A DNA stretch of 64,000 nucleotides from Scenedesmus sp. ARA3 (taxonomy: Eukaryota; Chlorophyta; Chlorophyceae; Sphaeropleales; Scenedesmaceae), in contig RWJK01001663.1 in assembly GCA_004335835.1 (NCBI GenBank), forward strand, positions 54,935-118,934, read 5' to 3'. Positions 9,566-63,060 of the stretch are shown piece by piece. Numbering within the stretch: position 1 is the stretch's first letter; the number at the start of each line of letters is the position of its first letter. The translations under genes and the position numbers were made by a program. Below the pieces are notes generated by a model that saw nothing but the letters and a program-made list of their open reading frames with translations, was not told the DNA's origin and ran no database searches.

Positions 9566-12257
9566 AGGGGCAGCTCGGCCTGGGCTCACCGAGGTTCCTT
9601 GGAGGAGAAGTAACAACAGCTCAGCCCAGCAGAGTTCCGCTGGTTATGCAGGGTACCCAGCTGCTGCAGCGCCTCAAGAAACAGCAGCAGCAGCAGCAGC
9701 AGCAGCTACCGGCAGCAGCAGCAGCAGCAGCTACAGGTCACCGCAGGCGGCAGCAGCAGCATTGCCGCTAGGTGCGTGTGACGAAGGAGCAGCGGAGCCT
9801 TATGAGGATGTGTGTGCATCGGCCTCTGAGGCAGGAGACGATTCAAACTCAAATGCAGCACCAGCTGCTAATGACAACAGCGTGCTCTCTCCTCGCATGG
9901 CGGTTGCAGGCGCTGCTGCTGCTGCTGCTGCCAGGCAGCCAGATGCACAGGCAGATCCAGCCGCTGCTGCTGCTGCTGCCGCCGCAGCAGCAGCAGGATG
10001 CGGCTTTACCAACCAGCAGCGCAGCAGCAGCAGCGGCAGCGACAACTTCTCACTGAAACCCCACCTGCCTCACAACAGCAGCAACAGCAGCGACGGCAGC
10101 ACTGCTGCCGAGGACGCACCTGGAAGTTGCGATGCCAGTGTTGTGAACTTCCCATTGGCCCACCTGACCTCCAGCAGCAGCAGCAGCGGCGCGTATGGTG
10201 ATGGCGCAGACACGCCGCACCTCAGTCTGCCTTCCCCGCATGGCAGCTTCATGAGTTACCACCACCAGCAGCTGTCTGCGCATTATGGTAATGCGTCAAC
10301 GGATGATGACAATGACACAGATGACAGCCCATGCAGCTTTGCAGAGCAGCAGGCGCTGATCCAGCAGCAGCAGCAGCAGCAGCAGCAGGAGGATGATGCT
10401 TTCGGCAGCTTCCATTTCAGGCTTCCGCCCATCAGGACAAAGAGCAACGGCAATTCAGCACTCCACAGCGCATGCAACCCCAATGCAGCTGGGATTAGCA
10501 GCAACCAGGGGCCACATCTCGAGCCAGCTCAGCTGCTGCGAGGTAGCAACGGCGGCGCAGCTGCTGCTGCAGCAGCAGCAACAGAGTCCGATCGTCTTGC
10601 TGCTGCCGCTGCTGCCACTGTGCGGGCAAGCAAGCCCTTAAGCAGGGCCGGCAGCATTGTTGCAAGTGTGGCGAGCACTTTGAGCCGCATCACTTCTGGC
10701 CGAAGCGTTTCAGCCGGCGGTGCCTTGAAGTCTGGCGGCAGCAGCAGCATGTATGGCCTGCCTCAGCCACCTACTGAAGAGACGTCTTTGCTAAACCCGC
10801 TGTTTAGCCCAAGCTCGCATGGGAGCAACCAGTCTAGCCCAGGACAGCTCGGCAGCAACGCTGCTGCTGCTGCTGCTGGTGGTGGTGGCGGAGGGTTTGG
10901 CAGCTCCCGCTCTGATCATGCGCTGCGGCACAGGCTGAGTCAGTCTACTGCCTGGCTAGGCACTACAAACTCAGGCGGTACAGGCAGTACACATTTGAAC
11001 ACAGGCGGTACAGGCAGTACGCATTTGAACACAGGCAGTACAACAGCAGACGGCCAGCCTGGGGGATCAGCTGCAACCATCAAGGCGTCGAGGTCTGGGG
11101 CAGGAGTAAATGCAGGAGCACTGTGGATGGTCATGCCTGATGCTGGAAAAGAGAGCATTGCGTGCGGCATTATGCAGCAGCAGGAGAAGGCACACCTTGC
11201 CGGGGCTATTCCTGCAGCACCTGGCACGGCTGCCTACATGGCTGCTGCCTCTGCAGGTGGGTGGAATGCTGAATAATTTGCATGCAGTGTAATCTTGCTG
11301 GCGATATAATATAGAAAAAGGCATGCATGCAAAGTCGAATCATGCCAGCGATGCGACAGGAAAGTCAGCATACATGATGCATGTACGGCTGCCTATATGG
11401 CTGCTACCTCGCAGGTGAGCAGAACACTCGACACTGAACAACTGCATGCAGTTGTATCATTCAAGCAATGCAACAGGAAAGTCAGCATACATGATGCACA
11501 TACGGCTGCCTACATGGCTGCTGCCTCTGCAGGTGGGTGACATGTGAAAAGTGCATGCATGCAGCTGTACTTTTGCAGCAACGTGGCAGGGTCATTCGGC
11601 ATGCAGCCCGCCCATCAAGACTGGGTGCTGGAGTAAACCCTGACACCCCATACCTCTCTTCCTGTACTTCCTCCTCAGCATGCGTGTGTGCGTCCCTAGC
11701 TGCCTCTGCAGCTGTGTGCCTCCCTAGCTGCCTCTGCAGCTCCTTGCACTGCACCAAACCACACACGCTGTTTATCGCACTACGCACGCCTCGATCCTCC
11801 GCATGAACATAACTTGCCCAACGCTGCCGCCCCGCCTGCATATATATTATCTGCTTGTATTGCAGGTGCTCACAGGGCGCACGACATTGCCTTTTACAAG
11901 GCGCAGGGCAGCAGCGGCGGCGGAAAGTCCAGTGCAGCAGGCAGCATGCCAAAACCTCAGGAAGCTAGCTACAGCTGGGTTCAGCGGCTGGCACGCAGCG
12001 AGCCAGGCGCAGGCTTGGGTTTAGGTTTCAGTGCAGGGGCGGGTCAGGGTTCAGGGCTTAACAACGGCAGCATCAAAACCGCGAGGAACAGCGCGAGCAG
12101 CGGCGTGAGTGCGGCGACACACCACACACACAAGAGCTGCAGCAGCAAGCAGAGCATGCCATCCATCACTGGATCTGCAGCAGAACAGAGCACCACTCGC
12201 AGCGGCGTCTCCCGCAGTGGTAGTACAAACACGGCAGCAAGCAAGAAGTCTGCTGGC

Positions 12258-12289
<32 letters not shown>

Positions 12290-13370
12290 GGGCAAGAATA
12301 CAGGCCCTCGCCGCATGTTCACCAAGCACCTGCTGCTGATCCTGCCGCTGCTGCTGCTGGTGGCTGCACTAGGCACTGGGGCTTGGGCCTGGGCATATGT
12401 TGCCACCAACAAGCCTGAGAATGCACCAGCTGCTGCTGTTGTGCAAGGGCCGTCGCTGCTGTTTAGAGTTACTGTGGCAGTGCCGACGCTGGGGTCTGGG
12501 CAAGGCTGTTCAAGATGGTTTGGAAACAGCCAGGTGAGAAATGCAAAAGTTTGCCTTTGCTTGCAATCGCTGAACACTGCAATCATTGACACGCTGTTGT
12601 CTATGATGCGTGGTTCAACAACACAAGCATATGTGGATTGAATTGCAATAGATATCCTCTGTGCGCGCCTGAAATCATCCTCACCGCATTGTCATTGTCT
12701 AATATCTGCTGTTCTGCAGAGAGTGCTGAACTACCAGCAGCTGTTTGCAGCCGCTTACTCAGCATCCTTAGGCATCACCGTGCCTGAAAACTCAGTGAGA
12801 AGCATCGCCTGCAGCAACGCAACTGTGTTTGCGCACACACCAGCAGCCAACAGCAGCAGCGCTGTACCTTCTAGCCTGCAGCAAGCTTCACACACCTCAG
12901 TGCGACCGCAGTCTGCCCCAGCAGCAGCAGCAGCAGCAAGCCCGGCAGCTAAGAGGCCCGGAGCGGTGATGGCAGCAGCAGCAGCGGCAGCAGCAGCACC
13001 GGCTGAGCACATCATTGGGCAGCTGGCAACACGCCAAGCATCCAGGACGCTGCTTCAGCAATTCTTTTTGGAATACCCGGCATCAATGGACATTTCGACT
13101 GTGTTTGCGCTGCCAGATCTTTCCAACAGTGCAGCAGCACGCGCAGCGTTTGTGGAGGCAGTTGTATCCAAGACCGCACAAACCTTGGACAGTCCGTTGA
13201 GTCACTTCTTTGGCGTGTCTGAGGTTATGGTGAAGGCAGTGGAGCTGATCAGATCTGATGCAGCAGCAGCAGCAGTGGCCGCGCCAATCAGCGCATCCAA
13301 AGTGCAGGCAGCAGCGCCAGGGTCTGCTGCATCTGCTTCTACCGCCAGATCAACCACCGCACCTGGAGGC

Positions 13371-13403
<33 letters not shown>

Positions 13404-14332
13404 ACAGCTGGTGCTGGCAGCCGCCCTTGGAGTAATCCTGGCAAGCCGCACAGCTTTGCCAATTACAAATCAGCTCCCGCCTGCCCCTTCCCTCCCTCAA
13501 AATCCAACAGCATTGCAGACTCCCAGGGGAGGTTTTGGAGCTGGAGCTGGGGTTCTGAGTGTGTTTTTAGGGCTCCTGCAGCCGGTCAAAGTGACAAGCC
13601 TGTTACAGTTGACTGGGAGACGGCTGTGACGTGTGACGAGGCGCCGAACGAGCAGAACAGCGTAGTGGATGACTCGGGGCGCCTTTGGGGTTGGCAGAAC
13701 GATGCAAGCTGTGCATTCAAAAACTTTGGCAAGGGCAGCAGCAGCAGCAGCAGCAGCGTCAGCGCAACGGCAGCAGCACAAGCGCCACTGAGCGCGGCTT
13801 CTAATGCCCGCATGCCAATGAAGCAGCAGCAGCAGGCTCGCAAGAGTCCTGCGGCATCGTTCCAGGATATGCAGGATAACTTGCCCACGCAAGTCAGTGT
13901 GGTGTGGGAGTCGGCGCCTACATGCTCCTTTGCTCCGAGCGACGCCAACGCTGTGCCAGACACCTTTGGGCGGTTGTGGGGGTGGGAGAACAACAACAGC
14001 TGCGCATTTAGGGTGAGTTTGGTGGGTTTTGTGTGATTTCCGGTATGCTTTGTTTGCAAGTACTGCAAAAATGCTGTGCTTCACCGTTGCAAAGCTAGTC
14101 TCTGGTCATTGCTGTCAGTGCTTGCTCATGCTAGCATGGTTGCATTCTCTTGTTCAATGACTTATGTCATGCACTGCCGATTCTTCCTATGGCAAGCATG
14201 CCCAAACAGAACGTTGCTTGTGCCAAACAGCGATGCCATTTCTATCCATCCTCCTGAAGTTGTACTGCCGTCTGCCTGCTGCCCTCTTGCTGCCTGCTGC
14301 CTGCCTGCCTGCAGTGGCAGTCCCTGCCCTGA
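7407..14332 (+). CDS. Giant low-complexity single-pass membrane protein with three Cys/Trp repeats
   Basis: No known family recognised. Exons 7407-11256, 11866-12533 and 12720-14012, joined in phase (1, then 0), plus a tiny predicted last exon at 14315-14332; about 1.94k residues. Exon 1 (1283 aa) is almost wholly low complexity: runs of Gln, Ala and Ser from (CAG)n in different frames, plus Ser-Pro-Arg repeats of the RxxSPxR kind (about residues 480-560). Exon 2 holds a basic flank (GPRRMF) and one strong hydrophobic helix (about residues 1437-1461), suggesting a cytosolic N-terminus and lumenal or extracellular C-terminus. Exon 3 ends in three repeats of about 40 residues with the pattern APxCxxxP..N(S/A)xxD..GR.WGW....CAF. 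The last donor (AGG then GTGAGT at 14013) is strong, but the final exon is a guess; without splicing the frame stops at 14036. A secreted or cell-wall-binding role is possible but unproven. Confidence 0.7.
11371..11545 (+). repeat. Two extra copies of the exon 1 3' edge and donor in intron 1 of the large membrane protein gene
   Basis: The real exon end (11228-11262, ggctgcctacatggctgctg followed by ctctgcag and GTGGGT) recurs at about 11384-11416 (donor GTGAGC) and about 11502-11538 (donor GTGGGT), with the surrounding 'aaagtcagcatacatgatgc' also repeated. Spacing is about 155 and 118 bp. Confidence 0.85.
11696..11745 (+). repeat. Short direct repeat in intron 1 of the membrane protein gene
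   Basis: A 26-base unit, ctagctgcctctgcagctgt and its near-copy, appears twice in tandem at about 11695-11741. Nothing else is recognised between 11545 and 11865. Confidence 0.5.
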
Positions 14333-14845
14333 AGCTGACCCCACTGAAGCTGCAAGGCGTGACAAGGCCAGGCTGTGATGACAGATCCGCACCATCAGGT
14401 TTTACTTTTGCCAGGCAGTTGTTGGATGCTCTGCTGCTGGTGATGGTAGCAGCATCTGCTCCTGCTGCTGCCGCTGCTGTGGCGGCAACACCTGGGGTTA
14501 CAGCTGACGAAACTTAACGCATGAGATGGATGTTTTCGTAGCTTCTGATCATTTGTGGGCTAGTTTTGGAGGCAGTATCGCATTGGGATGCGCATGCAGC
14601 GTGGCCCAGATATTTAGGGCCATGAATACCGCCTGTCAAGAGGCTCAAATGCTGCTGGTTGGCTTGACTGTGCATTGCGGTATCATTTTCGCTTGCTGCT
14701 GGCTCAGCAAGCACCTGACTAGCAGGTTGGTTGCAGCAGCAACTGCCGGTGGTCAGTGTGCTGCAGGCCAGAGTGCAACAGCAGGGGTTGCACACTGTGC
14801 AGCAGGTGGCACAAAGCTACATGACTGGTGTAGATGCCCACGTGG
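14333..14845. other. Spacer 3' of the membrane protein gene
   Basis: No gene, RNA or repeat recognised. It should contain the 3' UTR of the preceding plus-strand gene. Confidence 0.3.
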
Positions 14846-15336
14846 CAGGCAGGGAGAGTCAGTGTGCGTTGACTGCACTGTGCACCATATCGCTGCATGC
14901 AAGGGGATCTGCAACAGAGTCTGCACGCAACGGGAGGCAGGGAGAGTCAGTGTGCAGTGACTGCACTGTGCACCATATCGCTGCATGCAAGCGGATCTGC
15001 AACAAAGTCTGCACACAATGGGAGGCAGGGAAGGCGTGCAGTGACTGCACCGTGCACCATATCGTTGCATGCGAGGGGTTGTTGCACCAGGGATCTGCAA
15101 TGTTGTGCTGTTTTCACTGGGGCACAGGAAGGGTGTGCGTTGAGCGCACTGTGCACCTCATCGCTGCATGCCTAAGGAATTGCAAGTCCTGCAATTGCGA
15201 CAGTGTTCTGTGGGCGATGCTGTTGTCACGGGGGCACAGAAAGGGTGTGCGTCGATTGCACTTTGCACCACATCGCTGCATGGCAGGGGATTTGCTGCTC
15301 GGTGTTCTGCAGGCAATGCTGTTGTTACTGGGGTGA
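14846..15336. repeat. Degenerate tandem satellite, five units of about 90-110 bp
   Basis: Each unit centres on gcactgtgcaccatatcgct followed by gcatgc; copies near 14870, 14960, 15045, 15145 and 15260. Divergence rises towards the right. No coding potential is conserved across units, and all frames give shadows only. Confidence 0.8.
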
Positions 15337-15484
15337 TTCGTTGGGTCAGTGTTTCAAGCACCGCATGTGCACCTACATGCAAGCAAACATAAGCTACTGA
15401 CCGTGCAGTGGCATATCTAGGTGAGGCTGTTTATGTTGCAAGTTGCAGTTGGCGTGCAAGTGGCATGCCTTTGAGCCAGCTGCT

Positions 15485-15945
15485 TCTGTTGACTGGTTGT
15501 GATCAACGCAGTGTGCTGCAGCAGCGCTGTTGCAACAGCTGTGCTGCCAGCAAAGAGTGTATGCGGCTCTACTTGATTGTGCTGGGTATGACATGAAGCT
15601 GTGATCGAGCATAGTGTCATCACTTGACTTGTGCAAACGTTGACTGGTTGTGATCAACGCAGGTGTGCAGCAGTGCTGTTACAACAGCTGTGCTGCCAGC
15701 AAAGGGTATACGCGGCTCTGCTTGATTGTGCTGGGTATGACATGAAGCTGTGATCGAGCATAGTATGATCACTTGGTACGTGCAAACGTGAACCGATTGT
15801 GATCATTGAAGTGCGCTGCGGCTGAGTTGATTCAACTGCTGTGCTGCCAGCGATAGACATGTGCGGCTTGAGTTGATTGTGCTGTATGGCATGCATGGCA
15901 TTCAGCTGTGATTAGTAATAAATTGATCACTTGCTGTCTGCAGAC
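15485..15945. repeat. Tandem repeat, three units of about 150 bp
   Basis: Units begin near 15489, 15640 and 15789 with gttgactggttgtgatcaac or variants, and share 'cagctgtgctgccagc' and 'gattgtgctg(g/t)(g/a)tatg(a/g)ca'. The first two are nearly identical; the third is more diverged. Confidence 0.85.
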
Positions 15946-15998
15946 GTGACCTTTTCACCTGGTCGCAACTGTGTGGAGAGAGAGTCTTCATGGCAGTT

Positions 15999-16132
15999 GC
16001 ATGGTTCATATGCAATGCACCACTGCTGCATGGTTCATATGCAATGCACCACCGCTGCACGGTGCGTTATGCAATGCACCACCGCTGCACGTTTTGATAA
16101 GCAATGCGCCACTGCTGCATGATTCATATGCA
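15999..16132. repeat. Minisatellite of about 30 bp, 4-5 units
   Basis: Unit gcatggttcatatgcaatgc followed by accactgct, with point differences between copies. More loosely related 'atgcatgatgcat' palindromic words continue to about 16300. Confidence 0.85.
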
Positions 16133-17053
16133 TACAGCAGGGCACCTAATGCAGGTGTGCTTGCACCTTGCATGCAATGCATCATGATGATGCAGAGTAC
16201 AGCACGGCACACGATTCCGCCATTGGTGCATGCACCACCAATGCATTTTCTGTTTGAATGCATGATGCATCAGATGCACTTAAATGCATCCTTCATGCTA
16301 GTGCTGCATGTCCATCCGGCAGATCTGAAGAGTGCTTGCAGCATCACACTGCATCACACTGCATGCAGCATACCTTACTTATGTTGCGTTCACTTTCACA
16401 CGTGGGGTTCTGCATCACGTGACAGATGCTGTACTCGCTGGGGATCAAGAGTGCGTAGATTATCATCAAGTGTACGATTACCAGTACAAGGAGCCACATC
16501 ATGTGCCGTTACAACCATTTTATGCATCCAATCCTTGGATAGAATTCAAAATATCCTGCTAGGTTAGGTGCACCTTTGACCAGAGCTTTGACCAGGGTTG
16601 ACCAGGGTACTGCTGCACTGCACATTGAGCACTGCGTGTTAGGCATTTGGAGGCTTCATTGTCAGTCCTGAGGTTACAAAATGGCATTGTTTGCATCGAG
16701 ATAGCCGCCATGCGGCTGCTGTCAGTGCACTGACCGTCAGTGCAGAAGTGACTTCTGCTCTATAGCAGGCATATAAATCGCAGGGGGTACCTTGACTGTC
16801 AGTGGAGTAAAGCATTGAAAGCATCGGCTTTGGCAAACGCCCTGAGCTTATGGCTCCAGCCATTGCGCATGCCATTTCTGAAAAAAAAGGAAGAACCTAT
16901 ACCTATAATATAGGTGCCTATGCCTACACAGTGAGGCCAGCAAGGCCTTCAAGCTGCATTCAAGTTCAAGTTGAAGTCAGGCCGCTGAAGGGGCTGGAGG
17001 AGAGCTTTCTGGAGGTTGCCGAACAGGGGCAGCTAAAGGGGCACTCAGACAAT
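16133..17053. other. Spacer without recognised genes
   Basis: Contains many short ATGCAT-type palindromic words (16170-16380) and a short repeat 'ttgaccagagctttgaccagggttgacc' split as three TTGACCAG words at 16577-16605. No conserved reading frame seen. Confidence 0.3.
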
Positions 17054-19040
17054 CTAGGTGTCGTGGACGTCACTAATGCACCCCTCCATAGCTGCGACAT
17101 CCTCCAGCAGCTGCTGCATAGCGCTGCCACCCTGCAGCCACAGCACAGCAGGAGCATGGCAAGTGTCAGCATGCCGGGCACACCGTGACTAGATGCCGGG
17201 CACACCGTGACTAGATGCCGGGCACACCGTGACTAGATGCCGGGCACACCGTGACTAGATGCCGGGCACACCGTGACTAGATGCCGGGCACACCGTGACT
17301 AGATGCACTGGGCGCATCAGCTGGTAAGAGCCAGGCTATCTTTGTTCAGTTCGCTCCAGCCAGAAATGCCGACGTTGACTTCAAGTCTTTGCAAGTTGCA
17401 AAACCCAGAAGTGTCCTGTCTGCGCAGTTGCAACTGAAGCAGACCATGCCACGTCACGGTGACGTAGTGCCGTCCGTGGTGGTACACACCGTGCATGGCT
17501 TGCAGCATGGAATGCTTCAGCAACAATGCTCAGCAAAGCTAGCTGCAGTTCCTCCTCAGGCACGCACCTCTGCCACCAGCCTCATGCCATCACAACCTGA
17601 TGCTCGAAGCCCGCAGCCACCGCGCTGCACGCCACATGCTGCAACAGACGTCTCGTCTGCATCATTAACGCCTGCTACTCCTGGCATCCGTGTACAGGTC
17701 TTTAGCTCCAGCTCCCTCAGCTGCGGCAGTGCATCAGGCCGCTTGTGGTGCAGCTGCCGCACCGTCAGCGCCAGATCCCGTGCATCCAACCCCTCTCCCT
17801 CGAGGCACAGATGCGTCAGCTGGCTGAGCCCAGCAAGCACAGTCAGTGCAGCAGCAGGCAGCTGCCAGCTGCCGTAGCCGCAGCTGAGCTGGCAGCGCTG
17901 CAGCTGCTGCAGCCGCGGCAGCTGCTGCAGCACTTCTGAGTGGCGGGCCATGACAGTATAGCTGCTGCTGGCACTGTCGCTGTTCAGACTCAGGTGCAGA
18001 CGTGTCAGTGTGCTGGGTGACACCAGCTGCAGCAACGCATCCGGAAGCATATCATCAAACCCTGACTGGATGTCTAGACGCCGCAGAGCCAGCAGCTGCT
18101 GTGGTTCTGATGTGTGTACTACCTGTGATGTGTGTGCAGTAGTTGCGCTCGGCATAGTGAAACCAGCTGTTTCACAGCTGTGCAGCTGCAGGCTCTGCAA
18201 ACTGGGGAGGCATGCCAGCATTGCAGCAAAGCTGGCCACCGGACCTGCAGGCACCTGGCCTCCTGCTATTGCTGCTGCTGCTGCTGCTGCTGATGTTCCT
18301 GTAGTGCCTGTTGCCCGAGTCATGGTGGTAAGGTTCTTGGGTGCTGCCCCTGCTTCTGCGCTGTGGTTGCTACTGACCTTGCAGCTGTCGAGTGCGAGTT
18401 CAGCCAGTGTGTTGCTGCTGCTGGCGAGGGCTGTGCTGAGCATATCTGCTGTACCTTGCCAGCCACCTAGCTGCAGCCGTCTCAGTCCCTGCAGTTTGAC
18501 CATCGTCATCTCTTGAAGGCTGCTTGGGCTGTTGATGAGCACTAGCTCTGTGATGCCTCTGATGTTGGCTCCACTGCTGCCAATATGTGGCTTCCCCTTG
18601 CAAGAAACAGCCGCTCCTGCAGCTACAGCTGCAGCTGCAGCTGCAGCACCGCTGATGCTGCCGAGCTCCTGCCAGCTGGTGTGAGGCATCTCCAATGCAT
18701 CTAATTGCAGGGACTTGAGCTTCGGCATGTCGGCAAAGGGAATGCTGATTTGCAGTGGCTTGGTAGAATTGCGTGCGTGCAGCTGCAGGGTAACCACGTG
18801 CTGACCGTGCTTGTGCAGCCACTGCTGGGTGTGATATGCACGGCTGAGGTACGACCAGGGGCTTCTGGGCTGCTGCACAAAGCAGGCTGCAACAGTGGTG
18901 CATGCTGAGCAGGCGGCAGCATTCCAAGCCTTACAGGCGAGAGCTGCATGCTGCAGGTGCTCGGAGTCTGTGCTGTTGTTCAGGCACCGCTGCAGCACCT
19001 CCTGTGGGAGCTCAGCCCAGCTTGCTTGTCGAGCTAAGCA
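17054..19040 (-). CDS. F-box / leucine-rich-repeat protein
   Basis: Probable substrate-recruiting subunit of an SCF ubiquitin ligase. The main exon runs about 19040-17568. An F-box-like start (LPQEVLQRC, then LQHAALACKAWNAAA) covers its first 35-40 residues. It is followed by degenerate leucine-rich repeats: MPKLKSLQLDAL, LQGLRRLQLGG, LAELALDSCKV, LPSLQSLQLHSC, LLALRRLDIQSG, LTRLHLSLNS, LSQLTHLCLEG and LPQLRELELKTC. The frame meets a stop at 17556, but a good donor (GAG then GTGCGT, at 17567) allows splicing to a 26-codon exon 17131-17054 ending in TAG. No in-frame ATG precedes the F-box and an upstream stop lies near 19100. The start therefore sits in an unidentified 5' exon, or the annotation begins later. 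LRR type and F-box are recognised by pattern only. Confidence 0.65.
17171..17306. repeat. 22-bp minisatellite, six perfect units
   Basis: Unit atgccgggcacaccgtgact followed by ag, starting at 17171, 17193, 17215, 17237, 17259 and 17281; a seventh decays at 17303. It lies just 3' of the F-box gene terminal exon. Confidence 0.97.
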
Positions 19041-20299
19041 CTGCAGGCACAGCGTGGAAAGCCACCAGATTGCACGTTTAGCACGAGCTCACTTCACTGT
19101 GCGCTACTAATTTCAGTCTAACTTGAGCTCTGCTGTGCTGCAGTACTTCTGTTCCCATGCCAACTCACCATAATGCCATCTTCTGACGTGTTACAGCGGT
19201 CTCTTGACTCGCGGCAGGCTAATTTGCAGCCCATATGACAATTCAAACCTAACAGACAACCTTCAATGCTCAAGCCGTCGAGAGCAAGAAGGTTCGAGCT
19301 GTTGATGGCGGGTTGGACCTCGTGCCCGAAACAGGGTCTGCCGCTGCTGCCTACGAAAATTTGCCGTGCGCTTAAGTAACAAATTTTAGTTAAAAAAAGC
19401 TTTATATTGTACAAAAAGCTCGACCAAGGAGCACTACAGCCTGTTACTGACATCTGAGCTGTAGCAAGAGTAACATGTTTGACCGTCCGGTGATCCACCA
19501 AGTCCACTGCGGACCTCTACTCGCCTGCAACTACGAAGGAGCAGTTGCTGCGAAGGCTTGAAGGCCTTACAAGTGCAGCTGGTGCCGCAGGAACAGCCCC
19601 CTGATCAGCCTGTAGGCATCATGCCTGCATCAATGTCGCGTCACGGTGACGACTTAGATGACAGGCAGTGTCAGCCAATGCAGGCAGCAGCAGCATTGGC
19701 TGGCAGGCACGCACAATGAGCACTTTCTCTTCATCGTCTGCTGATGCTGTGGGCAATCACAGGGTGCACTCGATGGCTTGCAGCGGCAGCATTTGCCTTC
19801 TAATGCACTTCATTTCACGGATCACAGCCTTGAAAAGCTTGGCTTTCAACAGAAGCACTGCTTCTGGCGCTGGCAGTGGCGCAGTCATGTTGTGTGTTAC
19901 AAACCTTGATATGGTGACAACTAAGGTATCCCTGCCACAACCCTTGGCACAGTGCTCCGTGCCTCACCAACCCCACCCGTCTAAAACCCTACCCACATCA
20001 ACCGCATCCACACCCGCACGCGCGTCCCCACCACCCGCCCTGCAATGTATACAGCAGCACCTTGGCTGCCCTCCTCAACACACTGCTCCACCAGCAGCAA
20101 CATCCACCAACAGCTTCCTGCTGCCTGCCTGCTTCTCCACCTTGCAGGACAACCAGCCATGCCAAGACAAAACTGCTTGTTGTCATGCTGCCGCAGCTGC
20201 CAGTGCCGCCTTGCCGCTGCCTTGCTCGCAGCAGCTGCTGCTGCCACACCCTCAACGCAGCTGCAGCACCCGCAGCTGCTCTGTTGGGACCTTGCGGTC
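19041..20299. other. Spacer between the F-box gene and PSRP-3
   Basis: Must hold the F-box gene's 5' exon and promoter and the 3' UTR of PSRP-3. No convincing exon found. A TTACA at 19897-19901 reads TGTAA on the minus strand, the green-algal polyadenylation signal, about 470 nt past the PSRP-3 stop. Confidence 0.35.
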
Positions 20300-20383
20300 G
20301 CCTACAGTCTTCCTGCAAGCCGCCTACAGAGTTCCTGCAAGCCGCCTACAGAGTTCCTGCAAGCCGCCTACAGAGTTCCTGCG
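20300..20383. repeat. 22-bp minisatellite overlapping the PSRP-3 stop codon
   Basis: Unit gttcctgcaagccgcctaca followed by ga, about 3.5-4 units. Read on the minus strand, the first unit supplies the last codons (Ala-Gly-Thr-Leu) and the TAG stop of PSRP-3; the rest repeat the stop downstream. Confidence 0.93.
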
Positions 20384-51200: not shown

Positions 51201-54200
51201 CGTCCCTTGCCGTGCTTTGCGTGTGTGGGCCGTATGTCCTTTTCACTGTCTGGCTGGCCCTGCTGCAGCTCAGCCTCTTCCGCTGCTTGCACCTCCTCAT
51301 CGTACTCGTCAAAGACCTGTAGTTGCAAGATGAATTTTAGTCGCAATATGGGTTGTTGACTTGCAGGACGGCAGCAACAGGCATATCACATGCAACACAA
51401 ATGCACCTCCTCATCGTACTCGTCCAAGACCTGCATATGCAACAGAAACACAGATGCGATGGAAAGGTGATTTGCTGACTTCCTAGACCCTTTTTGCTGT
51501 CTGGCTGGCCCTGCTGCAGCTCAGCCGGTTCTGCTGCTGCTTGCACCTCCTCATCGTACTCGTCAAACACCTGTGGTTGCAAGAGGAGTTTTAGTCGCCC
51601 GCAAAAAGTTCGCGGGGCATGGTCCGTACGGAAGAGTATATGGGTTGTTGACTTGCAGGACGGCAGCAACAGGCATATCACACGCAGCACAAATGCACCT
51701 CCTCATCGTACTCGTCAAAGACCTCCAGTTGCGAAGGAAACCCAGATGCATATGCAATTCGACCTGCTGACTTGCAGGACGGAGCGCAGCACCAGGCACA
51801 TGCCATGCAACAGCGACACACACAGGTTCAATTCCATGCCCAGGTTACGTCACACATGTCACTTACTAGATTGTCCATTACGTGTCAATAACATGTCTTG
51901 TCTACAAGGCCGCATTGCTCACCATGTTTTTCATGAGCACGGGGATGAGGCGCGCCATCACCGGCACCAGCAGCTCCATGCCCAGATCACTCTCGCAGAA
52001 GGCCAGCCAGAACTCAGCCGCCTCCAGCGCCACCTCATCATCAGCATCCTGCAGATGGTTGCGCAAGCAATCATTATTGATTAGTTGATCATTGTAATGT
52101 GTTGGGTTGTTATGGCATTGATACAGCAAAGGCCAGCCAGAACTCAGCAGCCTCCAGCGCCACCTCATCGTCAGCGTCCTGCAAATGATTGCACAAGCAA
52201 TCAATACTGAAAACAGAACATTCAGAGTTATTATGGTGTGTTTCGATTGCAAACCAGCATTGACGCAGCAAAGGCCAGCCAGAACTCAGCAGCCCCCAGC
52301 GCCACCTCATCGTCAGCGCCCTGAACAGCACCTGAATGAGCCAGAAACGTGTGATGCAAGTGAAGAGACGCGTGGAAGCCAGCCAGAAATCCGCAGCTTC
52401 CAGTGCCACACCGTTAAGCATCCTGCAAAGAAATGTCTGTAAGGGGGCTGGTTGATGTTGTTGTATGACCTGCAGCACCTTCTTCGAGCCTTTTGGGCTT
52501 GCTCTCACACTTGATGACCAGCATGTACTCGACCAGCTGCGGCACCACCCCACACAAAATGAACCACACAGACCAGCTGCGGCACCACCCCACACAAAAT
52601 GAACCACACAAACCTGATCAACAAACAAAAGAGCAGGCTTGTGGCTCAGCTGGTTGCTGACCAGCATGCACTCTACTGATCAGCTGCGCCACCCGCGTGT
52701 ACAAAGGGATCCAAACACACCCAAGTACCAACCCGAGAAGGTGGCTCACCTGGTTGCTGACCAGCATGTACTCGACCAGCTGCGGCAGCTGCGCCTGCAG
52801 CAGCTCCGGGTGCACCGCGATGAGCTGGCAGAAGCCGATGCACACCTCGCGCCGCACGCCCGGGCTCTCATCAGTGGCCAGCTTGAACACAGCCTGCAGA
52901 AGTCATTGGGAGAGCAGACCAACCAACTCAGTATGATGTGTGGCAGACAACCTCGCAGCAGCAGAGGCCAGAGCACGCCGGTCACATGCAACACCAGCAC
53001 AGCCCATGATCTTCTTGCCCTTGCTAAGGAACACGTCGCCGCACAAGATGCGCTTGCTTCAGTGTACTGCGGCAGTGCTGTCTGGAAGCCGGCAGGCATC
53101 TGGCCAAACATCTCGTTGAGCACGGCCAGCGCAGCAAGCGCCACAACCTGATACTAACTAGCTATGATTTGTGGCCGACAACCTCGCAGCAGCAGCGGCC
53201 TCATCACGTGGAAGCACGCTTGCCACATGCAACACCAGCACAGCCCATGATCCTCTTGCCCTCGCAAACGAATGGAGAACACACCAGCAAAATCTATGCA
53301 CTTACCTCTGTGTATTGCGGCAGTGCTGCTTGGAAGCCAGCAGGCATCTGGCCAAACATCTCGTTGAGCACGGCCAGTGCACGCCGCCGCACCTCGGCTG
53401 CGGGGCTGCCCAGCAGAGCCAGCAGCGGCGGCACCAGCATGTTGCTGACCGGCGCGGGCGCGGGGCCCCAGCTGGCACCCACCAGGCGCGTGTCCATCTG
53501 CAGGTGGGTCAAAGATGCGGCACAAATCGATTTAAAACATGTATCAGGATTAGGCGGACGTGGTACATGTCGTTATTATGTTAAAACCACCGTCACAAGC
53601 GTCACTGCTGACCTCACGCGGGGTGGTCTCTCACAATGCTGGCCAAGCCGTCCAGTGCTCCATCAAGTGCACCGCTGTGGCCGCTGCCCCCGCAACCAGC
53701 AAAACCCCAGCTTAACTCATTGTAAATACACTGCTACTTGTCAGTGTGTTATAACAATGTTATTACTCCAACTGCTCACCTCATGTGGGTGGTCCTCCAC
53801 AATCTTAGCCAAGCTGTCCAGTGCTCCATCAAGGGCAGCGCTGTCGCCGCTGCCCTGCAAACTTGCTCCCAGCCACACCACCAGCTCAGGCCAGCCACTT
53901 AGCCCCAGTGTGCCCACTACTGTTGTGGTGATGCTGCCTGCGGTGTGGCGCAACACGCGCTCTGGGTGGCACAGCACGTGCAGCAGGTCACCCTGCGACA
54001 ACACGCCATCAGTGTCATAAGGTTGTCAGCATGTGGGCGCTGCTGGGCTATGTTGCAGCTGCATACATGCATGCACGCAAGCAAAACCGAAAAACTGCGA
54101 GTACAGGCACAACATCGCCCCCAAAAGCCTGCCGCTGCGCCTTCCAAGCATGAGCAACTCATGACGCAACAGCAGCGACAGCTGCCTGCCTCAGTGCATC

Positions 54201-54485
54201 ACAGCACAACTGCCAAACATGCCACCATGCTTGACGCTGTCCAAGGCTGCTGCGCTGCAGCTGCAGCCACGCTTTCTCCCTGCTGCTGATGCTGATGCTG
54301 GTGCTGCTGCTGTTGCTGCTGCTGTGCTGCAACTGCGCTTGCTGCTGCAGCAATGCTTGATCTTGCTGCTGCTGCTGCTGCTGCGCCCCACCTTGATGTA
54401 GTTCCTGAAGTCCTCCGAGAGCCCCGCGTACTGCTCCTTGAGGTTGTTCTTCAGCAGCAGCCCCGCACTCTGGCGCACCTGCAGC

Positions 54486-54524
<39 letters not shown>

Positions 54525-55443
54525 GCGGTTGCGGGCTGCAGCTTCAAACACACTGCGGACTGCTGCAGCTGCTGCTGCACATGACTTGCCAGCGCTGCTC
54601 TTTCAATTACATTGCAATTCTCACAGCAAGCTGCTGATGAAGGTCAGACGGTGATGTGGTGCATGCGCGTTCATGTCAGTGCTAGCAGCTTCAGTCTGCT
54701 CGCTGACCCCAAGCAGCTGCAAGGCCTGTGACCAGCAGTATGAAGTGTTGCTGCTGCTGCTGCTGCTGCCGCCGCTGCTGCTGCTGCTGCCGCACCTCCA
54801 TGGGCAGGTTGTCTCCCTTTGAGAATATGACGGAGAGGTAGTTGTTGAAGTCTGCAACATGCCTTGCCTGGTCCAGCTGCTGCAGGATCTGCGCAAGCAT
54901 TTGCGAAGCAACAAACAGAATGGTTTGTGATACAGCAGCAGCAAGCGATGGCAGAAGGCAGCAGCGCATCCTACAGCTCACAAAACAGCAAGAGCAACTG
55001 CAGTGGAGCTGCTGGGGTAAGCTGGAGCACACCAGCTGCTGCACTACGTGCATGCCGCACAGTGTGCTGTGCTGCTGCATGCTGCTGCATCCTGCTGCTG
55101 CTGCTCCGGCAGTTGATTACGCCTTACCAGTGCCAGCAACGGTATAGGCCAATGCAGAATAACGTGCATGATGCCAGCACCGTTTGTAATGCTGCTGCAT
55201 TGTGCTACTGCTGCTGCTGCTGCTGCTCACGCAACTGCTTTGCAACATCTCCAGCAATGCTACCGGTCCAAGCTACAGCCTTGCAGCATCACAGTCTGAC
55301 CAAATTCCATCAGGCAAGCATTCAGCTAATCATCCCCTTGGCAGTCTCACCAGTGCTTGGTTTGCTCCAGGCTTCTGAAAGTCTGACAGCAGCTGGCACA
55401 GCTGCAGGTAAGCAGCCTCTTGGGGCTGCCATACTAACGCCAT
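45207..55443 (-). CDS. TNPO1: Transportin-1 / karyopherin beta-2 nuclear import receptor
   Basis: HEAT-repeat importin for PY-NLS cargoes such as hnRNP-like and ribosomal proteins. Exons (minus): 55443-55351, 54888-54796, 54478-54392, 53992-53780, 53497-53306, 52893-52750, 52048-51923, 51316-51160, 50834-50563, 50158-50027, 49700-49551, 49115-48792, 48416-48196, 47326-47197, 46862-46716, 46394-46241, 45370-45207. These give 2799 nt and 932 aa, all phases closed; human TNPO1 is about 890-900 aa. Diagnostic segments: WQPQEAAYLQLCQLL at the start, DFNNYLSVIF, QSAGLLLKNNLK, VALEAAEFWLAF, the acidic H8-loop region (DSEKDIRPTHAKHG then EDDGDDDDE), WNLRKCSAAALDML, SEGCHMGLAPYL, RVQEAACSGLAEL, LDMLAGVADGL, VRQSAFALVGDLAK, NNAIWSLGELMIK, WCNALRNIRDDYEKEQAFRG, and a C-terminus near EAWGRLVASLEPAVRSKL. 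Confidence 0.95.
45575..46135 (-). repeat. Copies of the transportin exon 16 3' edge with donor
   Basis: Two good copies (about 45750-45860 and 45985-46100) repeat YEKEQAFRGLVAVVHKTPEP then AVTAFPAFA and GTGAGT; shorter fragments lie at 45575-45610 and 45680-45700. The real edge is 46241-46340, and the intron sequence between is repeated as well. Confidence 0.93.
46600..46675 (-). repeat. Copy of the transportin exon 15 3' edge
   Basis: ctgatccgggcacaccacgg and the following bases match 46715-46760 (ISLGRAAMVCPDQ edge). It lies in the downstream intron. Confidence 0.88.
47641..48213 (-). repeat. 116-bp tandem array seeded by the transportin exon 13 3' edge
   Basis: Units begin at 47641, 47750, 47866, 47982 and 48098; the next unit start, 48214, is inside the real exon. 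The last three intervals are exactly 116 bp. Each unit contains GDLAKSCPR codons and the GTGAGA donor followed by about 80 bp of intron with 'aactggcctataaactggca'. Confidence 0.98.
47700..47749. other. Assembly gap (50 N)
   Basis: Lies inside the 116-bp array, so the true copy number is unknown. Confidence 0.99.
48490..48562 (-). repeat. Copy of the transportin exon 13 5' edge with acceptor
   Basis: atatgagctggcacttcctg then caagctgcagagcagaaggt repeats 48394-48434; it lies in the upstream intron. Confidence 0.93.
49880..49935 (-). repeat. Copy of the transportin exon 10 3' edge with donor
   Basis: cactcacctcattccctggc then ctaacacgcagcaggggagc matches 50020-50065 with changes; in the downstream intron. 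Confidence 0.8.
50225..50395 (-). repeat. Two copies of the transportin exon 10 5' edge
   Basis: gatgatgcgcaccatgggcc followed by gcgg recurs at about 50237 and 50366, against the real 50131-50158 (DPRPMVRIIT). The nearer copy also keeps the acceptor. Confidence 0.93.
50420..50530 (-). repeat. Copy of the transportin exon 9 3' edge
   Basis: About 100 bp (HMGLAPYLTDMVKMLLPVLQ and adjacent codons) repeated almost without change from 50563-50665; in the downstream intron. Confidence 0.96.
51395..51740 (-). repeat. Three copies of the transportin exon 8 5' edge
   Basis: cacctcctcatcgtactcgt recurs at 51405, 51545 and 51696 (real exon 51290-51310). The middle copy extends through AELQQGQPDS. Confidence 0.95.
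52118..52425 (-). repeat. Three copies of the transportin exon 7 5' edge
   Basis: aaggccagccagaactcagc and the following DADDEVALEAAEFWLA codons recur near 52128 and 52270, and decayed near 52378; real exon 52000-52048. Each copy is preceded, on the minus strand, by an acceptor-like CAG. Confidence 0.95.
52490..52705 (-). repeat. Copies of the transportin exon 6 3' edge
   Basis: QLVEYMLVSNQ-type sequence recurs at 52507-52550 and about 52640-52690 (frame lost). A 42-bp direct repeat 'gaccagctgcggcaccaccc' lies at 52530-52614. Confidence 0.88.
53035..53150 (-). repeat. Copy of the transportin exon 5 3' edge
   Basis: About 80 bp (LAVLNEMFGQMPAGFQTALPQY) copied from 53306-53385. The flanking 'cctcgcagcagcag(a/c)ggcc' is repeated too. 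Confidence 0.95.
53610..53695 (-). repeat. Copy of the transportin exon 4 3' edge
   Basis: gccgtccagtgctccatcaa then gtgcaccgctgtggccgctg resembles 53812-53860; in the downstream intron. Confidence 0.88.
54360..54530. repeat. (CAG/CTG)n tracts hugging transportin exon 3
   Basis: On the coding strand (CTG)n precedes the exon 3 acceptor (54481-54530) and (CAG)n follows its donor (54364-54384). Confidence 0.9.
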
Positions 55444-56080: not shown

Positions 56081-56714
56081 TGCCAGCTACCTAGCTGCTG
56101 CCAGGGCCTGCTGCTGCAGCAGCAGCTCCGAGCTGAGCGGAGTCCGTGCGCGCTCCGCTGCTAGGTTGCAAGCGAGGCAACCTGCTGGCGACTGCTGGCG
56201 CCTGCGCACCTGCAGCTTTCCACGGTGCTGCCAGCAGCTGCCGCTTAGTCTGCTTGCTACCCAACTGCTGCCAGCCGCCGCCGCCTGCTGCCGCAGCTCC
56301 GCTGCTAGCTGCTGCCGCCAAGCCGCCAACTTGGCCCGGGCGCCAGTCCCGCTGCACAGTCTGCTCGCTGCCTAGCTGCTGCCAGCTGCCACCGCCTGCT
56401 GCTGCTGCTACTGCTGCTGCAGCTGCCGCCGCTCCACTGCCAGCTGCTGCCTGCGCGCCTCCAGCTTTGCCCGGTACGCAAGCCCCTGCAACATGATCTG
56501 CTTGCTACCTAGCTACTGCCGACTGCCGCCACCTGCTGCTGCTGCCGCTCCGCCGCTGCTAAACTGCTGCCGCTGTGCCTCCAGCTTCACCCGATGCTGC
56601 CAGCCCCGCTGCAAAACCTGCTTGCTGCCTAGCTGCTGCCGCCTGCAGCTGAAGCCACCTGCTGCTGCTGCTGCTGCAGCGCCTGTGCCCACCACTGCAC
56701 CATCTGCTTGCCGC
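56081..56714 (-). repeat. Array of about six decayed copies of the uL4m terminal exon edge, beyond the stop
   Basis: Units of about 85-130 bp share 'tgcttgctgcctagctgctg' (near 56085, 56250, 56358, 56497, 56620, 56703) and 'cgcctccagctttgcccggt' (56457, 56577; real 56813). They repeat the [11 protein letters not shown] to stop part of the last exon. Confidence 0.9.
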
Positions 56715-59066
56715 CTAGCTGCTGCCGCCTGCATCCGAGGCCACCTGCTGCTGCTGCTGCTGCTGCTGCAGCCACTGCTGCCGCCGCTCCACTGCTGCCT
56801 GCTGCCGCCGCGCCTCCAGTTTTGCGCGGTACGCCAGCCCCGCTGCCCCCAGCCGATTAATCGGCGCGCGCAGCCGCTCCACCAGCTCATCAAGCGCTGG
56901 CTTTGTCATAACCAGCACATCTTTCCGCACGATGCTGTACACGTTTGCGCCGATCGAAGGCAGGATCTCGACTCCCGGCAGGTTGCGCGCCGCGCGGCGC
57001 AGCATGACGCCGCCATCATCGCCGTCTTTTGCTGAGTCTACCAGCAAGGCATTGAGGCGAGGATGCTCTTGCAGGAGGTGGGAGAGCTTTGCTGCTATGG
57101 CCTTGGTTTTGGGCGAGGTGGGGTGTAGGCTGTCCAGCAGCAGCAGGCGGCCCTCATTGGCCTTGGCTGACAGCGCACACTTGAGGCCCAGGCGGCGCAC
57201 CTGCGGGAGGGTTTAAAGTTTGAGTAAAAGAGGGTTTAGGGTTTGCATGCGGAAGGGTTTAGGGTCTGTGGGGGAGCAGCAGCAGGCGGCACTCATTGGC
57301 TTTGGCTGACAGCGCACACTTGAGGCCCAGGCGGCGCACCTGCGGTTTTAGGGTTTGGCCAGTACAGGAGGTTTCGGGGGAAAAAGTTTGAAGTTCAGCA
57401 GGAATATGTGAGGACAACAGCGACACAGAAGCGCGCAATTGCTGATGCAGCTTTCACTGTTTGCTGCAGACATCAAGCACGGCATGGTGCAGAAGCACAC
57501 AAACATGTAGTGCAAGTCAACACAGCAGCATGACTAGTACTGCTGCAAACGCACCTTCTTTGGCAGCGCGTATGCATACGAGCGAGGGACAGGCCCGTGC
57601 ACAATGCCGCCGCCGCGCCACTGCGGGGCGCGATTGGAGCCCTGCCGTGCCCTGCCGGTGCCCTTCTGAGGCCACGGCTTGCGGCCGCCACCCGAGACCT
57701 GTCCGAGATAGCGGCAGGTGTTAGTTTGCCGTTGGTTTGTTGTTGATGTTGTTGGCATGCAGGCGGACGTTGAGTAGATGTGTGGGAGCAGTGCTCAAGC
57801 ATTGGTGCCGCAGCCTGCCGGTGCCCTTCTGAGGCCACGGCTTGCGGCCGCCTCCTGAAACCTGTGGCCGGCAGGTGTTACATTGTTATGTTTTTAGTTT
57901 ATGACGTTTAGGTTTGTTGATAGTTTTGGTGGCAAGCAGCAGAGGTGCAAAGGGCGTGCAAGCAGGCGTTGAGCAGGAAGTGTGGGGGCAGTGTGCAAGC
58001 ATTGGTGCCGCGCCCTGTCGCTACCTTTCTGCGGACACGGCTTGCGCCCGCCTCCTGAGACCTGTGGCGGCAGGTGTTACAATGTTACATAGTTACAGTG
58101 TCCACTGTCTGATATAGCTTACTGCATCATCGTCCCCTTCTGTGGCCACGGCTTGAAGCGCCTCCCTCGCTGAGGTCCATGTCGCACACAGCACGGTGCA
58201 AGAGGATGCATCCAGATAAAAGCCAGCCACTGTTTCATTTTTGACATTATTCAATGCAGCACACAGCCACGCACCTCGCTGCGTTCCTTGGTCTTGTGTG
58301 TGCCCTGGCGCGCCTTGGCCCGCTGCCAGCGCACCACCTCGTGGATGATGTCCCCACGCACTGCGGCAGCAGCAACAGCAGCAGCAAACGGAAGTGATGT
58401 CAGCAGCAAACAACAGCAGCCAGGGCAGCACAACCTCGTTGATGATGTCACCACACACTGCGCCGGCAGCAGCAGCAGCAGCAGCAGATGACCTTTACAC
58501 AATCTGCAGCTCATCAAGCAAGCACCACCTCGTGGATGATGTCTACAACAAATCCCTGCATCACCCAACCTCTTTTCCCACAGGTGGCACATCGAAGATG
58601 ACTCCTGGCAGCTCCACTGCTGCCAGCTGCTGCTTGATTCAACTTTCATGCCACTACAGATCCAGTGCAACAATCAACATATCATCCAACCACGTCACCC
58701 ACCTGGCACATTGAAGATGTCTCCAGGCAGCTCCACTGCTGCCAGCTGCTGCTTGTCTAAGTTGTACAGTGTCACTCGCCGCGGGCTGTAATACTCTACA
58801 GGAAATGGGTACTGCACCACAAGCCCCGACTTGCCAGGGGCTGGACCTTTTAGCACTGAGGCATCAGACAGTATGGATGGCACTGCTGCTGCAAACCCCG
58901 CGTGCTGCTGCCAGTGGTGGTGCTGCGGCAGCCGCTGCAGCAGCTGCTGCTGTTGCTGAGGTGCTGCTGCTAGGACGCCGCTGCAGCAGCAGCTGCGCAG
59001 CAGGCTGCTGCAGCTTGCTGCCAGGAGCTTCGCGGCTTGTTGCCGCGCAAATACAACTGGTAGCAT
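56715..59066 (-). CDS. MRPL4: Mitochondrial ribosomal protein uL4m (MRPL4)
   Basis: Large-subunit ribosomal protein of the RplD family; organelle assigned from the N-terminal extension. Exons 59066-58703, 58360-58275, 57698-57555, 57200-56715; 1080 nt, 359 aa, phases closed. The N-terminal 60 or so residues are rich in Ala, Arg, Ser, Gln and His and lack acidic residues (presequence-like). The L4 core follows: [24 protein letters not shown], shown here in two exons, then [20 protein letters not shown], the very conserved [19 protein letters not shown] loop, [21 protein letters not shown] and [21 protein letters not shown] basic Gln-rich tail ends the protein. A plastid L4 is the alternative; targeting cannot be decided by eye. 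It is divergent to RRP8. Confidence 0.93.
57265..57345 (-). repeat. Copy of the uL4m exon 4 5' edge with acceptor
   Basis: [20 protein letters not shown] is repeated after a CCGCAG acceptor at 57341-57275; the real exon starts at 57200. Confidence 0.96.
57785..58165 (-). repeat. Three copies of the uL4m exon 3 5' edge
   Basis: cttctgaggccacggcttgc and flanks recur at about 57823, 58030 (decayed) and 58137 (more decayed), decreasing in identity with distance from the real exon (57555-57698). Confidence 0.92.
58425..58645 (-). repeat. Copies of the uL4m exon 2 5' edge and exon 1 3' edge in intron 1
   Basis: The exon 2 start recurs at 58434-58462 and 58527-58548 ('cctcgt(g/t)gatgatgtc'). The exon 1 end recurs at 58581-58640 ('ggcacatcgaagatg', 'ggcagctccactgctgccag'). 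Confidence 0.9.
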
Positions 59067-62809: not shown

Positions 62810-62884
62810 TCAGCGGCAGCGACTCAGGGCCTCAACAGCCTTCTTGGCAACCATCATCGCGACTGCTGTTGCAGTTGGTGTGCG

Positions 62885-63060
62885 ACAACAGGCGCTGGGC
62901 TTCAAGCTGGTGCAGCAGGATGTATGCCGGAGCTCCAACCGCATGTTTGTGGTGTTCGTGCTGAAGAAGCAGCAGCAGGCGGCTGCAGGCGCTGCTGCTG
63001 CGCTCATGAGCCTTGATCAAGTGGCCGCCGCTGAAGGCCTGTGTGTACAAGAAGGGCTGA
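62885..63060 (+). repeat. Copy of the RRP8 terminal exon, with stop, beyond the real stop
   Basis: Repeats LGFKLVQQD..NRMFVVFVLKK through the final CVYKK codons and a TGA at 63058-63060, with small insertions that shift frame internally. Confidence 0.95.

What the first reader, a model, noticed from the sequence alone, without database searches (positions are those of the whole stretch)
11228..63060. Exon-edge tandem duplication is a window-wide rule: splice junctions and stop codons shelter short tandem repeats
In at least six genes I find about 40 extra copies of exon edges. 5' edges plus acceptor lie only in the upstream intron; 3' edges plus donor lie only in the downstream intron; terminal-exon copies lie only beyond the stop. 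None carries a whole internal exon. Spacing is mostly 100-130 bp and identity falls with distance from the real edge. Inference: an intense short tandem-duplication process hits everywhere, and selection keeps only events whose extra copy is spliced out or left untranslated. It would explain intron growth here and supply ready-made alternative splice sites. I know of tandem duplication proposed for intron gain, but not of a genome in which nearly every intron shows edge copies.
Basis: partly seen in the sequence, partly recalled or inferred. Interest (0 to 1): 0.92.

Follow-up and report, generated by a model that had tools for sequence, protein, structure and literature searches.

The report
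Exon-edge copies fill alga's introns
In this green alga (Tetradesmus obliquus or a close strain) many introns carry decayed duplicate pieces of the neighbouring exon together with its splice site, which go with longer introns and leave decoy splice sites in them.

Summary
The core observation is real. With curated models for six genes (55 exons), 24 copies of exon 5' edges all lie upstream and 29 copies of 3' edges all lie downstream, with no strict whole-exon copy; the same search against unrelated windows gave 1 hit in 295 tests. 28 of 49 introns carry one. Twenty other stretches, with predicted exons, repeat it: 92 copies on the expected side, 23 not, 21 of these in three array-rich stretches.

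Best explanation: direct tandem duplications of about 100-250 bp. The side rule follows from geometry; selection shows in the missing exon-internal duplications of the curated genes. The copies decay like dead sequence: 36 of 38 exon-part indels break the frame.

Not confirmed: "nearly every intron" and "identity falls with distance".

Against the simplest version: no intron-only duplication was found in the curated genes, in 20 of 37 nearest copies similarity stops by the splice site, and copies differ from exons mostly at synonymous sites (N/S 0.23-0.28; neutral simulation 0.41-0.54). The synonymous excess is unexplained. Novelty: a genome-wide variant of a known mutation type.

The parts
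45577..55443 (-). Transportin-like gene (TNPO), 16 exons modelled (last coding exon(s) not modelled); 3'-edge copies at 53604-53689, 52985-53133, 52641-52697, 50402-50524, 49883-49927, 48000-48117, 47885-48001, 47768-47882, 47606-47657, 46609-46670, 45916-46100, 45747-45857, 45577-45619; interior-type 50353-50388, 52511-52544
   Evidence: Open frame over 16 exons; homologous to T. obliquus OEZ85_004416 and a Raphidocelis transportin-like protein; 15 of 15 junctions match OEZ85_004416, with one 8-residue insertion at junction 7; two exons had no Pfam match; copies
47034..52427 (-). TNPO 5'-edge copies: 52378-52427, 52264-52323, 52129-52210, 51694-51811, 51489-51686, 51402-51442, 50231-50295, 48497-48588, 47034-47062
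   Evidence: the 24-nt exon-8 edge copy matches the microexon VFDEYDEE in P0121
26525..37535 (-). ABC transporter gene (subfamily C by recall), 20 exons modelled; 3'-edge copies 36150-36194, 30407-30487, 29416-29546, 29368-29429, 26810-26889; 5'-edge copies 36477-36635, 36007-36028, 32879-32929, 27820-27872; interior-type 36617-36678
   Evidence: Open frame over 20 GT-AG exons; Pfam ABC_tran and ABC_membrane
38592..43422 (+). Phytochelatin synthase gene (PCS), 7 exons (start not fixed); 5'-edge copies 39611-39694, 40286-40360, 40885-40991, 41995-42101; 3'-edge copies 40013-40091, 40124-40197, 41451-41541, 41619-41709; interior-type 41862-41914
   Evidence: Pfam Phytochelatin on exons 3-5; 6 of 6 junctions match OEZ86_008492
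56460..59066 (-). Ribosomal protein L4 gene, 4 exons (56715-59066); 5'-edge copies 57275-57345, 57806-57865, 58006-58079, 58428-58462; 3'-edge copy 58560-58636; interior-type hits 56460-56486 (beyond the stop), 58132-58155, 58522-58543
   Evidence: Pfam Ribosomal_L4; 3 of 3 junctions match P0001 and are without insertion in P0002, P0006, P0007
59416..63061 (+). RRP8-like methyltransferase gene, 5 exons; 3'-edge copies 61035-61089, 61476-61583, 61623-61744; 5'-edge copies 61743-61829, 62330-62362, 62453-62521; copies of the last exon beyond the stop 62894-62975, 63034-63061
   Evidence: Pfam Methyltransf_8 on exon 4
7407..14012 (+). Poly-Q/A/S-rich gene (G7), 3 exons modelled; 3'-edge copies 11385-11417 and 11502-11576
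27704..28861 (-). Degraded interior-type copies in ABCC introns: 27704-27743, 28220-28246, 28247-28277, 28832-28861 (the last covers exon 15 positions 18-77 of 91 when aligned with gaps)
14843..45287 (.). Tandem duplications outside the modelled gene bodies at 9 places: 14843-15333, 15488-15949, 16005-16132, 17171-17306, 21606-21993, 22771-22907, 25546-25734, 25830-26202, 44999-45287
   Evidence: 15 of the 20 pairs listed as 'elsewhere'; the other 5 lie in TNPO intron 16. Some of the 9 may lie in genes that I did not model

Best explanation
Short direct tandem duplications, mostly of about 100-250 bp, occur in this alga's genome, including outside the modelled genes. When the duplicated stretch spans a splice site, the exon body stays joined to one copy of the edge and the spare edge with its splice site ends up inside the intron (upstream for an acceptor, downstream for a donor) or beyond the stop for a last exon. 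Splicing keeps using the edge joined to the exon body, so the protein is unchanged and the spare is free to decay. Duplications inside exons are removed by selection. Repeated events build small arrays and lengthen introns. Shown here: the copies, their sides, their frame-breaking decay, the association with intron length. Inferred: the mutational mechanism (for instance fill-in repair of breaks with long overhangs), that the edge joined to the exon is the one used in RNA, and that the rate is similar across the genome.
For: Direct, almost never inverted, local pairs (78 vs 0 in the window; 154 vs 1 in 196.9 kb elsewhere). Side rule 53 of 53 with curated exons (control 1 hit in 295 tests), and 92 vs 23, or 67 vs 2 without array-rich loci, with predicted exons. 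Some edges carry 2-4 copies with the same inner junction, read by eye, as arrays do. Outside the copies 14 of 45 introns are more self-similar than all 20 shuffles; of the 10 with z>5, by my reading 9 lie at or near an edge-copy offset, so the unit included intron, and one is a minisatellite. Introns with copies are longer (median 382 vs 317, p=0.009; longer introns also have more room for copies), and an estimated 43% of intron bp lies within duplicated spans. Copies decay as dead sequence: 36 of 38 exon-part indels are not multiples of 3, 96 of 120 pairs have a stop in the read-through, and in three genes, where copy and exon differ in amino acid, Scenedesmus sp. NREL 46B-D3 agrees with the exon in 62 of 63 cases; in six further relatives it is 88 exon, 30 neither, 5 copy (repeated copies of one exon counted apart). 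Edges of three genes match public T. obliquus proteins at 15/15, 6/6 and 3/3 junctions, with one 8-residue insertion. About 10% divergence between copies and exons speaks against an assembly artefact for most of them.
Against: A uniform-duplication simulation with neutral decay predicts 0.93 detectable intron-only pairs per edge event at the age given by amino-acid changes and indels, and 0.78 at the age given by synonymous changes. None independent of an edge was seen in the gene bodies: the 9 intron-only pairs of 58 are, by coordinates, two copies of one edge each; a minisatellite in ABCC intron 14 shows up only. In 20 of 37 nearest copies similarity stops within 14 bp of the splice site, against 5-8% simulated at those ages. 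Synonymous differences are too many: N/S 0.23 (95% 0.18-0.29, 65 pairs) and 0.28 (0.20-0.40) against 0.41-0.54 simulated. In random loci 17 of 161 hits lie inside a predicted exon and 24 of 93 local pairs are coding-coding. No offset under 96 bp among the 37 nearest copies of the curated genes is not explained.
Confidence: 0.72

Rival explanations
1. Copies were templated by, or exchanged with, a diverged allele of the same gene: unequal exchange between homologous chromosomes in a very diverse population puts an edge of allele B next to an edge of allele A. Introns of the alleles differ too much to align, and the exon edge differs mainly at synonymous sites from birth.
For: Low N/S in two separate samples although copies break frame and mostly cannot be read through; similarity that often stops at the splice consensus; copy-copy pairs also have N/S 0.27; the 24 pairs with no amino-acid change still differ at 14.8% of synonymous sites, though Poisson noise alone can give such a class.
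Against: No second locus of TNPO exon 12 or PCS exon 5 was reported in the assembly (two queries only). The 21 pairs with at least 20 aligned intron bases show 12.5% intron difference but 20.5% synonymous difference (14.1% at fourfold sites), whereas diverged alleles should differ in introns too. Allele diversity of this strain was not measurable here.
Confidence: 0.2
2. The copies are functional: alternative edges that are spliced into some transcripts and kept by selection.
For: Low N/S; conservation up to the splice consensus; a 24-nt copy is a microexon in the public T. obliquus transportin model; seven pairs leave an open in-frame read-through with N/S 0.12; of 54 surplus exons that my gene finder called in the annotated spans, 34 overlap a copy.
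Against: 36 of 38 indels break frame; 96 of 120 pairs have stops, with about the same N/S of 0.25; offsets are not enriched for multiples of 3 (35 of 120); amino-acid changes in copies fall on residues that a relative shares with the exon (62 of 63, three genes).
Confidence: 0.07
3. Copying is directed to exon edges (for example by a splicing- or transcription-linked break), not random tandem duplication.
For: No independent intron-only duplication in the curated gene bodies at the scan's threshold; 20 of 37 nearest copies lack intron flank.
Against: Tandem duplications occur at 9 places outside the modelled gene bodies, and 26 of 93 local pairs outside array-rich random loci are noncoding, 14 of these from two arrays; residual intron similarity at or near the same offset in several introns.
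Confidence: 0.15
4. Assembly artefact.
For: Two 50-N gaps lie inside repeats.
Against: Copies differ from exons by about 10% and carry private changes; artefacts would be near-identical. Copy number in the 116-bp array at 47606-48230 is in doubt.
Confidence: 0.02

Closest known systems
[quoted passage not shown] review PMC3443670, passages; potato RdRp case PMC4974935, passages; Drosophila near intron pairs PMC2891723, abstract and passages)
   Same: Short direct tandem duplication creating extra splice sites next to an exon. In the potato case the duplicated segment is an intron-exon structure with a putative branch site, polypyrimidine tract and 3' splice site.
   Different: There one event makes a new intron or inserted exon. 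Here existing introns are lengthened, the extra edge is left in the intron, and it is found in 28 of 49 curated introns and in 14 of 20 other stretches (counted).
Small tandem duplications from repair of nearby nicks or breaks with overhangs (CST and DNA polymerase alpha-primase, PMC8355091, passages; Schiml 2016 and Vaughn and Bennetzen 2014 seen only as references there)
   Same: Direct tandem copies of short local stretches; a plausible source mechanism.
   Different: That paper speaks of insertions under 100 bp; here the nearest copies in the curated genes start at 96 bp. Junction microhomology was not tested.
Tandem exon duplication and mutually exclusive exons (recalled)
   Same: Extra coding pieces inside introns.
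   Different: Exon edges, no strict whole-exon copy with curated exons; most copies carry stops or frameshifts on read-through.
Introners (recalled)
   Same: Repeated intron-associated sequence across a genome.
   Different: Each copy is private to its own exon; the one sequence searched, PCS exon 5, matched only its own locus.

Membership tests
Short tandem duplication | Copies direct, not inverted, and local | tested here: met
   78 direct vs 0 inverted local pairs in the window; 154 vs 1 in random loci
Short tandem duplication | Whole unit duplicated, including the intron part | tested here: inconclusive
   Clear in several arrays (offsets 116, 245, 122, 140); residual flank similarity p<0.05 in 33 of 53 pairs, but 12 of 28 where the alignment ends within 15 bp; 20 of 37 nearest copies align <=14 bp into the intron
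Short tandem duplication | Copies identical at birth, then neutral decay of the spare | tested here: not met
   N/S 0.23-0.28 against 0.41-0.54 simulated for a neutral spare; indels and side of amino-acid changes do fit decay. This lowers the simple form of the claim, not tandem duplication as such
[quoted passage not shown]
   The edge copies span existing acceptors or donors. AGGT inside the edge was seen for TNPO exon 8 by eye; it was not counted over all copies
Tandem or mutually exclusive exon duplication | Whole exon copied with both splice sites | tested here: not met
   0 of 66 hits with curated exons, 0 of 161 in random loci; 2 of 73 in the window with predicted exons, where copies are called exons
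Introner | Near-identical element at many unrelated introns | tested here: not met
   PCS exon 5 query: only its own locus, 4 matches. One query only
Repair of adjacent nicks | Microhomology or filler at junctions | not tested
   Junctions looked too diverged to read; no test was run

The most novel reading that the evidence does not exclude
Introns of this alga are an archive of former alleles: spare exon edges were laid down by unequal exchange between homologous chromosomes of a very diverse population, so dead copies preserve synonymous variants of exons that no longer exist in the assembly. That would account for the coding-type divergence of sequences that are plainly not coding, and would let allele history and duplication rate be read from one genome.
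Probability: 0.18. Interest if true: 0.8.

Novelty: new variant of a known kind. Interest (0 to 1): 0.6.

Why it matters
If the sample is typical, short tandem duplication is a main source of intron length in this lineage: an estimated 43% of intron bases in the curated genes lie in duplicated spans, and T. obliquus has the longest mean introns (462 bp) and the lowest coding share of the five algae tabulated in PMC5966456 (passages). It makes intron growth, decoy splice-site formation and the removal of harmful duplications countable in one genome. It also warns annotators: my gene finder called copies exons (34 of 54 surplus exons), and a public transportin model holds one as a microexon. The synonymous excess in dead copies is an open question that strain resequencing would settle.

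Tried and rejected
Rejected: assembly artefact (copies about 10% diverged); a second gene copy in the assembly as template (none reported for two exons searched); translated read-through as the cause of low N/S (96 of 120 pairs have stops, N/S 0.25); mutation context as the cause (position-3 mismatches expected from position-1/2 context rates 61.7 for one branch, observed 181; context is also in the simulation); conversion between exon and copy (by reasoning it cannot push N/S below 0.5; not simulated).

Led nowhere: correlation of exon part and gap as a test for a fixed unit (Spearman -0.07, n=37; -0.33, p=0.08, n=29 for offsets under 170). Splice-like motifs at the inner end of copies: GT near 6 of 24, AG near 14 of 29, no control run. 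My gene finder first had an indexing error in the acceptor model and was rerun; it was trained on the curated window genes, over-predicts (113 exons in the annotated spans, 54 of them beside no curated exon), and its exons in random loci are unverified. The null (541 hits in 295 tests at E<=0.005, no complexity filter) was too high, I think from CAG repeats, so I tightened to E<=1e-5 with a complexity filter (null then 1 in 295). My note says 16 of 20 loci; recounted it is 14 of 20 with a right-side edge copy.

In print? Nine searches of the open-access library listed no paper whose title or abstract start describes exon-edge copies as a genome-wide feature; only the listed rows were seen, and most subscription papers are not held.
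Full report
What it is. The window lies on contig C1267 of an 87.27-Mb, 1567-contig genome. Three proteins predicted from it are 99% identical to Tetradesmus obliquus proteins over 79-100% of their length, so it is that green alga or a close strain. I modelled six genes with 55 exons: an ABC transporter, a transportin, phytochelatin synthase, an RRP8-like methyltransferase, ribosomal protein L4 and a poly-Q/A-rich gene. All frames are open. For transportin, phytochelatin synthase and L4 the junctions match public T. obliquus proteins at 15/15, 6/6 and 3/3 places, with one 8-residue insertion at transportin junction 7; L4 proteins of relatives, two of them named as transcript ORFs, show no insertion at the junctions. 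The other three gene models rest on open frames, splice sites and Pfam matches alone.

The observation. A self-scan finds 78 direct and no inverted pair within 1 kb, against none in one shuffle. Probing each exon with 80 bp of flank gives, after filtering, 29 copies of 3' edges, all downstream, and 24 copies of 5' edges, all upstream; 12 interior hits outside the exon, 1 inside an exon, 0 whole. The same filtered search against unrelated windows gives 1 hit in 295 tests. 28 of 49 introns have a strict edge copy. Nearest copies lie 96-251 bp away, median 136. Identity does not fall with distance.

Genome-wide. In 20 other stretches, 196.9 kb, with exons predicted by a small gene finder (48 of 55 edges exact on each side in the window, its training set), 92 edge copies lie on the expected side and 23 on the other, with 46 interior and 0 whole hits. 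21 of the 23 lie in three array-rich loci; without these it is 67 against 2. 17 of the 161 hits lie inside a predicted exon, 15 of these in the same three loci. 14 of 20 stretches have at least one right-side edge copy (counted). As a caution, in the window the predicted exons give 9 wrong-side and 2 whole hits beside 50 right ones, where curated exons give none wrong, because copies are called exons. So this is not peculiar to the window, but it is uneven.

What the side rule means. A tandem duplication across an acceptor gives tail, edge, tail, edge, body: the edge joined to the body is always the second. Across a donor it is the first. The side rule is therefore geometry. Selection shows elsewhere: given the exon-intron map, 19% of random duplications would fall inside exons, about 17 for the 37 edge events here, and in the curated genes the only inside-exon matches lie in the repetitive exon 2 of RRP8. 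In the random loci 24 of 93 local pairs are coding-coding by predicted exons, which I could not resolve. Whole-exon events would be rare anyway (2.6 expected).

What happens to the copies. Indels in their exon part break the frame in 36 of 38 cases. Reading through from exon to copy meets a stop in 96 of 120 pairs. Where copy and exon differ in amino acid in three genes, Scenedesmus sp. NREL 46B-D3 agrees with the exon in 62 of 63 cases; six further relatives give 88 for the exon, 30 for neither and 5 for the copy. They behave as dead sequence. Introns with copies are longer, though longer introns also have more room, and an estimated 43% of intron bases lie within duplicated spans.

What does not fit. 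First, differences between copy and exon are concentrated at synonymous sites: N/S is 0.23 in the window (95% 0.18-0.29), 0.28 in random loci (0.20-0.40) and 0.27 between copies. A simulated neutral spare next to a constrained exon gives 0.41-0.54. Amino-acid changes and indels agree on one age, synonymous changes on about twice that. Second, similarity often stops at the splice consensus: 20 of 37 nearest copies align 14 bp or less into the intron, although residual similarity of the flanks is detectable in 33 of 53 pairs. Third, no intron-only duplication independent of an edge was detected in the gene bodies, where uniform duplication predicts 0.8-0.9 per edge event at the inferred ages. 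A high age would fit the flanks but not the low amino-acid divergence. In the random loci noncoding pairs do occur (26 of 93 outside array-rich loci, 14 of them from two arrays), and outside the modelled gene bodies of the window there are nine tandem places, so duplication is not confined to edges.

Reading. I take ordinary short tandem duplication with removal of coding-disruptive events as the core (0.72). The synonymous excess suggests that at least part of the copies began from a diverged allele, or that exon edges were later replaced by other alleles through recombination; this cannot be tested with one assembly. Functional use of the copies is unlikely as a rule, but one 24-nt copy is a microexon (VFDEYDEE) in the public transportin model.

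Comparison with what is known. Tandem genomic duplication is an accepted source of new introns (PMC3443670, passages), and a potato gene shows duplication of an intron-exon structure with its 3' splice site (PMC4974935, passages). Repair of breaks with overhangs makes short tandem duplications (PMC8355091, passages). T. obliquus has the longest mean introns of the five algae tabulated in PMC5966456 (passages). None of the rows listed by nine literature searches describes exon-edge copies as a general feature of a genome, but the library is partial and only titles and abstract starts were seen.

Noticed in passing
window 2222-5671 (-): ORFs with several MELT-like motifs (MELTG, MELTN) suggest a KNL1/Spc105-type kinetochore scaffold gene; name recalled, not tested.
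   Followed up: no
window 50402-50662 (-): TNPO exon 9 and its copy stay in one open frame (offset 138 = 46 codons; ORF 50287-51006), so intron retention would add a HEAT-repeat fragment.
   Followed up: partly
window 51402-51442, 51694-51722 (-): A 24-nt exon-8 edge copy flanked by an acceptor and GTGCAT appears as microexon VFDEYDEE in public T. obliquus protein OEZ85_004416.
   Followed up: partly
window 61743-62082 (+): The RRP8 exon 4 copy reads in frame into the exon (offset 123, by eye no stop), with 9 synonymous and 3 amino-acid differences.
   Followed up: partly
curated genes: No nearest-copy offset below 96 bp (37 edges) although shorter tandem repeats (22-88 bp) exist elsewhere in the window; cause unknown.
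   Followed up: no
window 17171-17306: Perfect 22-bp unit repeated 6.2 times.
   Followed up: no
window 29814-29863 and 47700-47749: Two 50-N gaps inside a CTG tract and a 116-bp edge array: copy number there is uncertain.
   Followed up: no
L014:1-1029: Satellite-like array with a unit of about 103 bp at the start of the stretch.
   Followed up: no
window 28220-28277 (-): In ABCC intron 16 a piece like exon 16 and a piece like exon 17 lie directly side by side without an intron between them.
   Followed up: no
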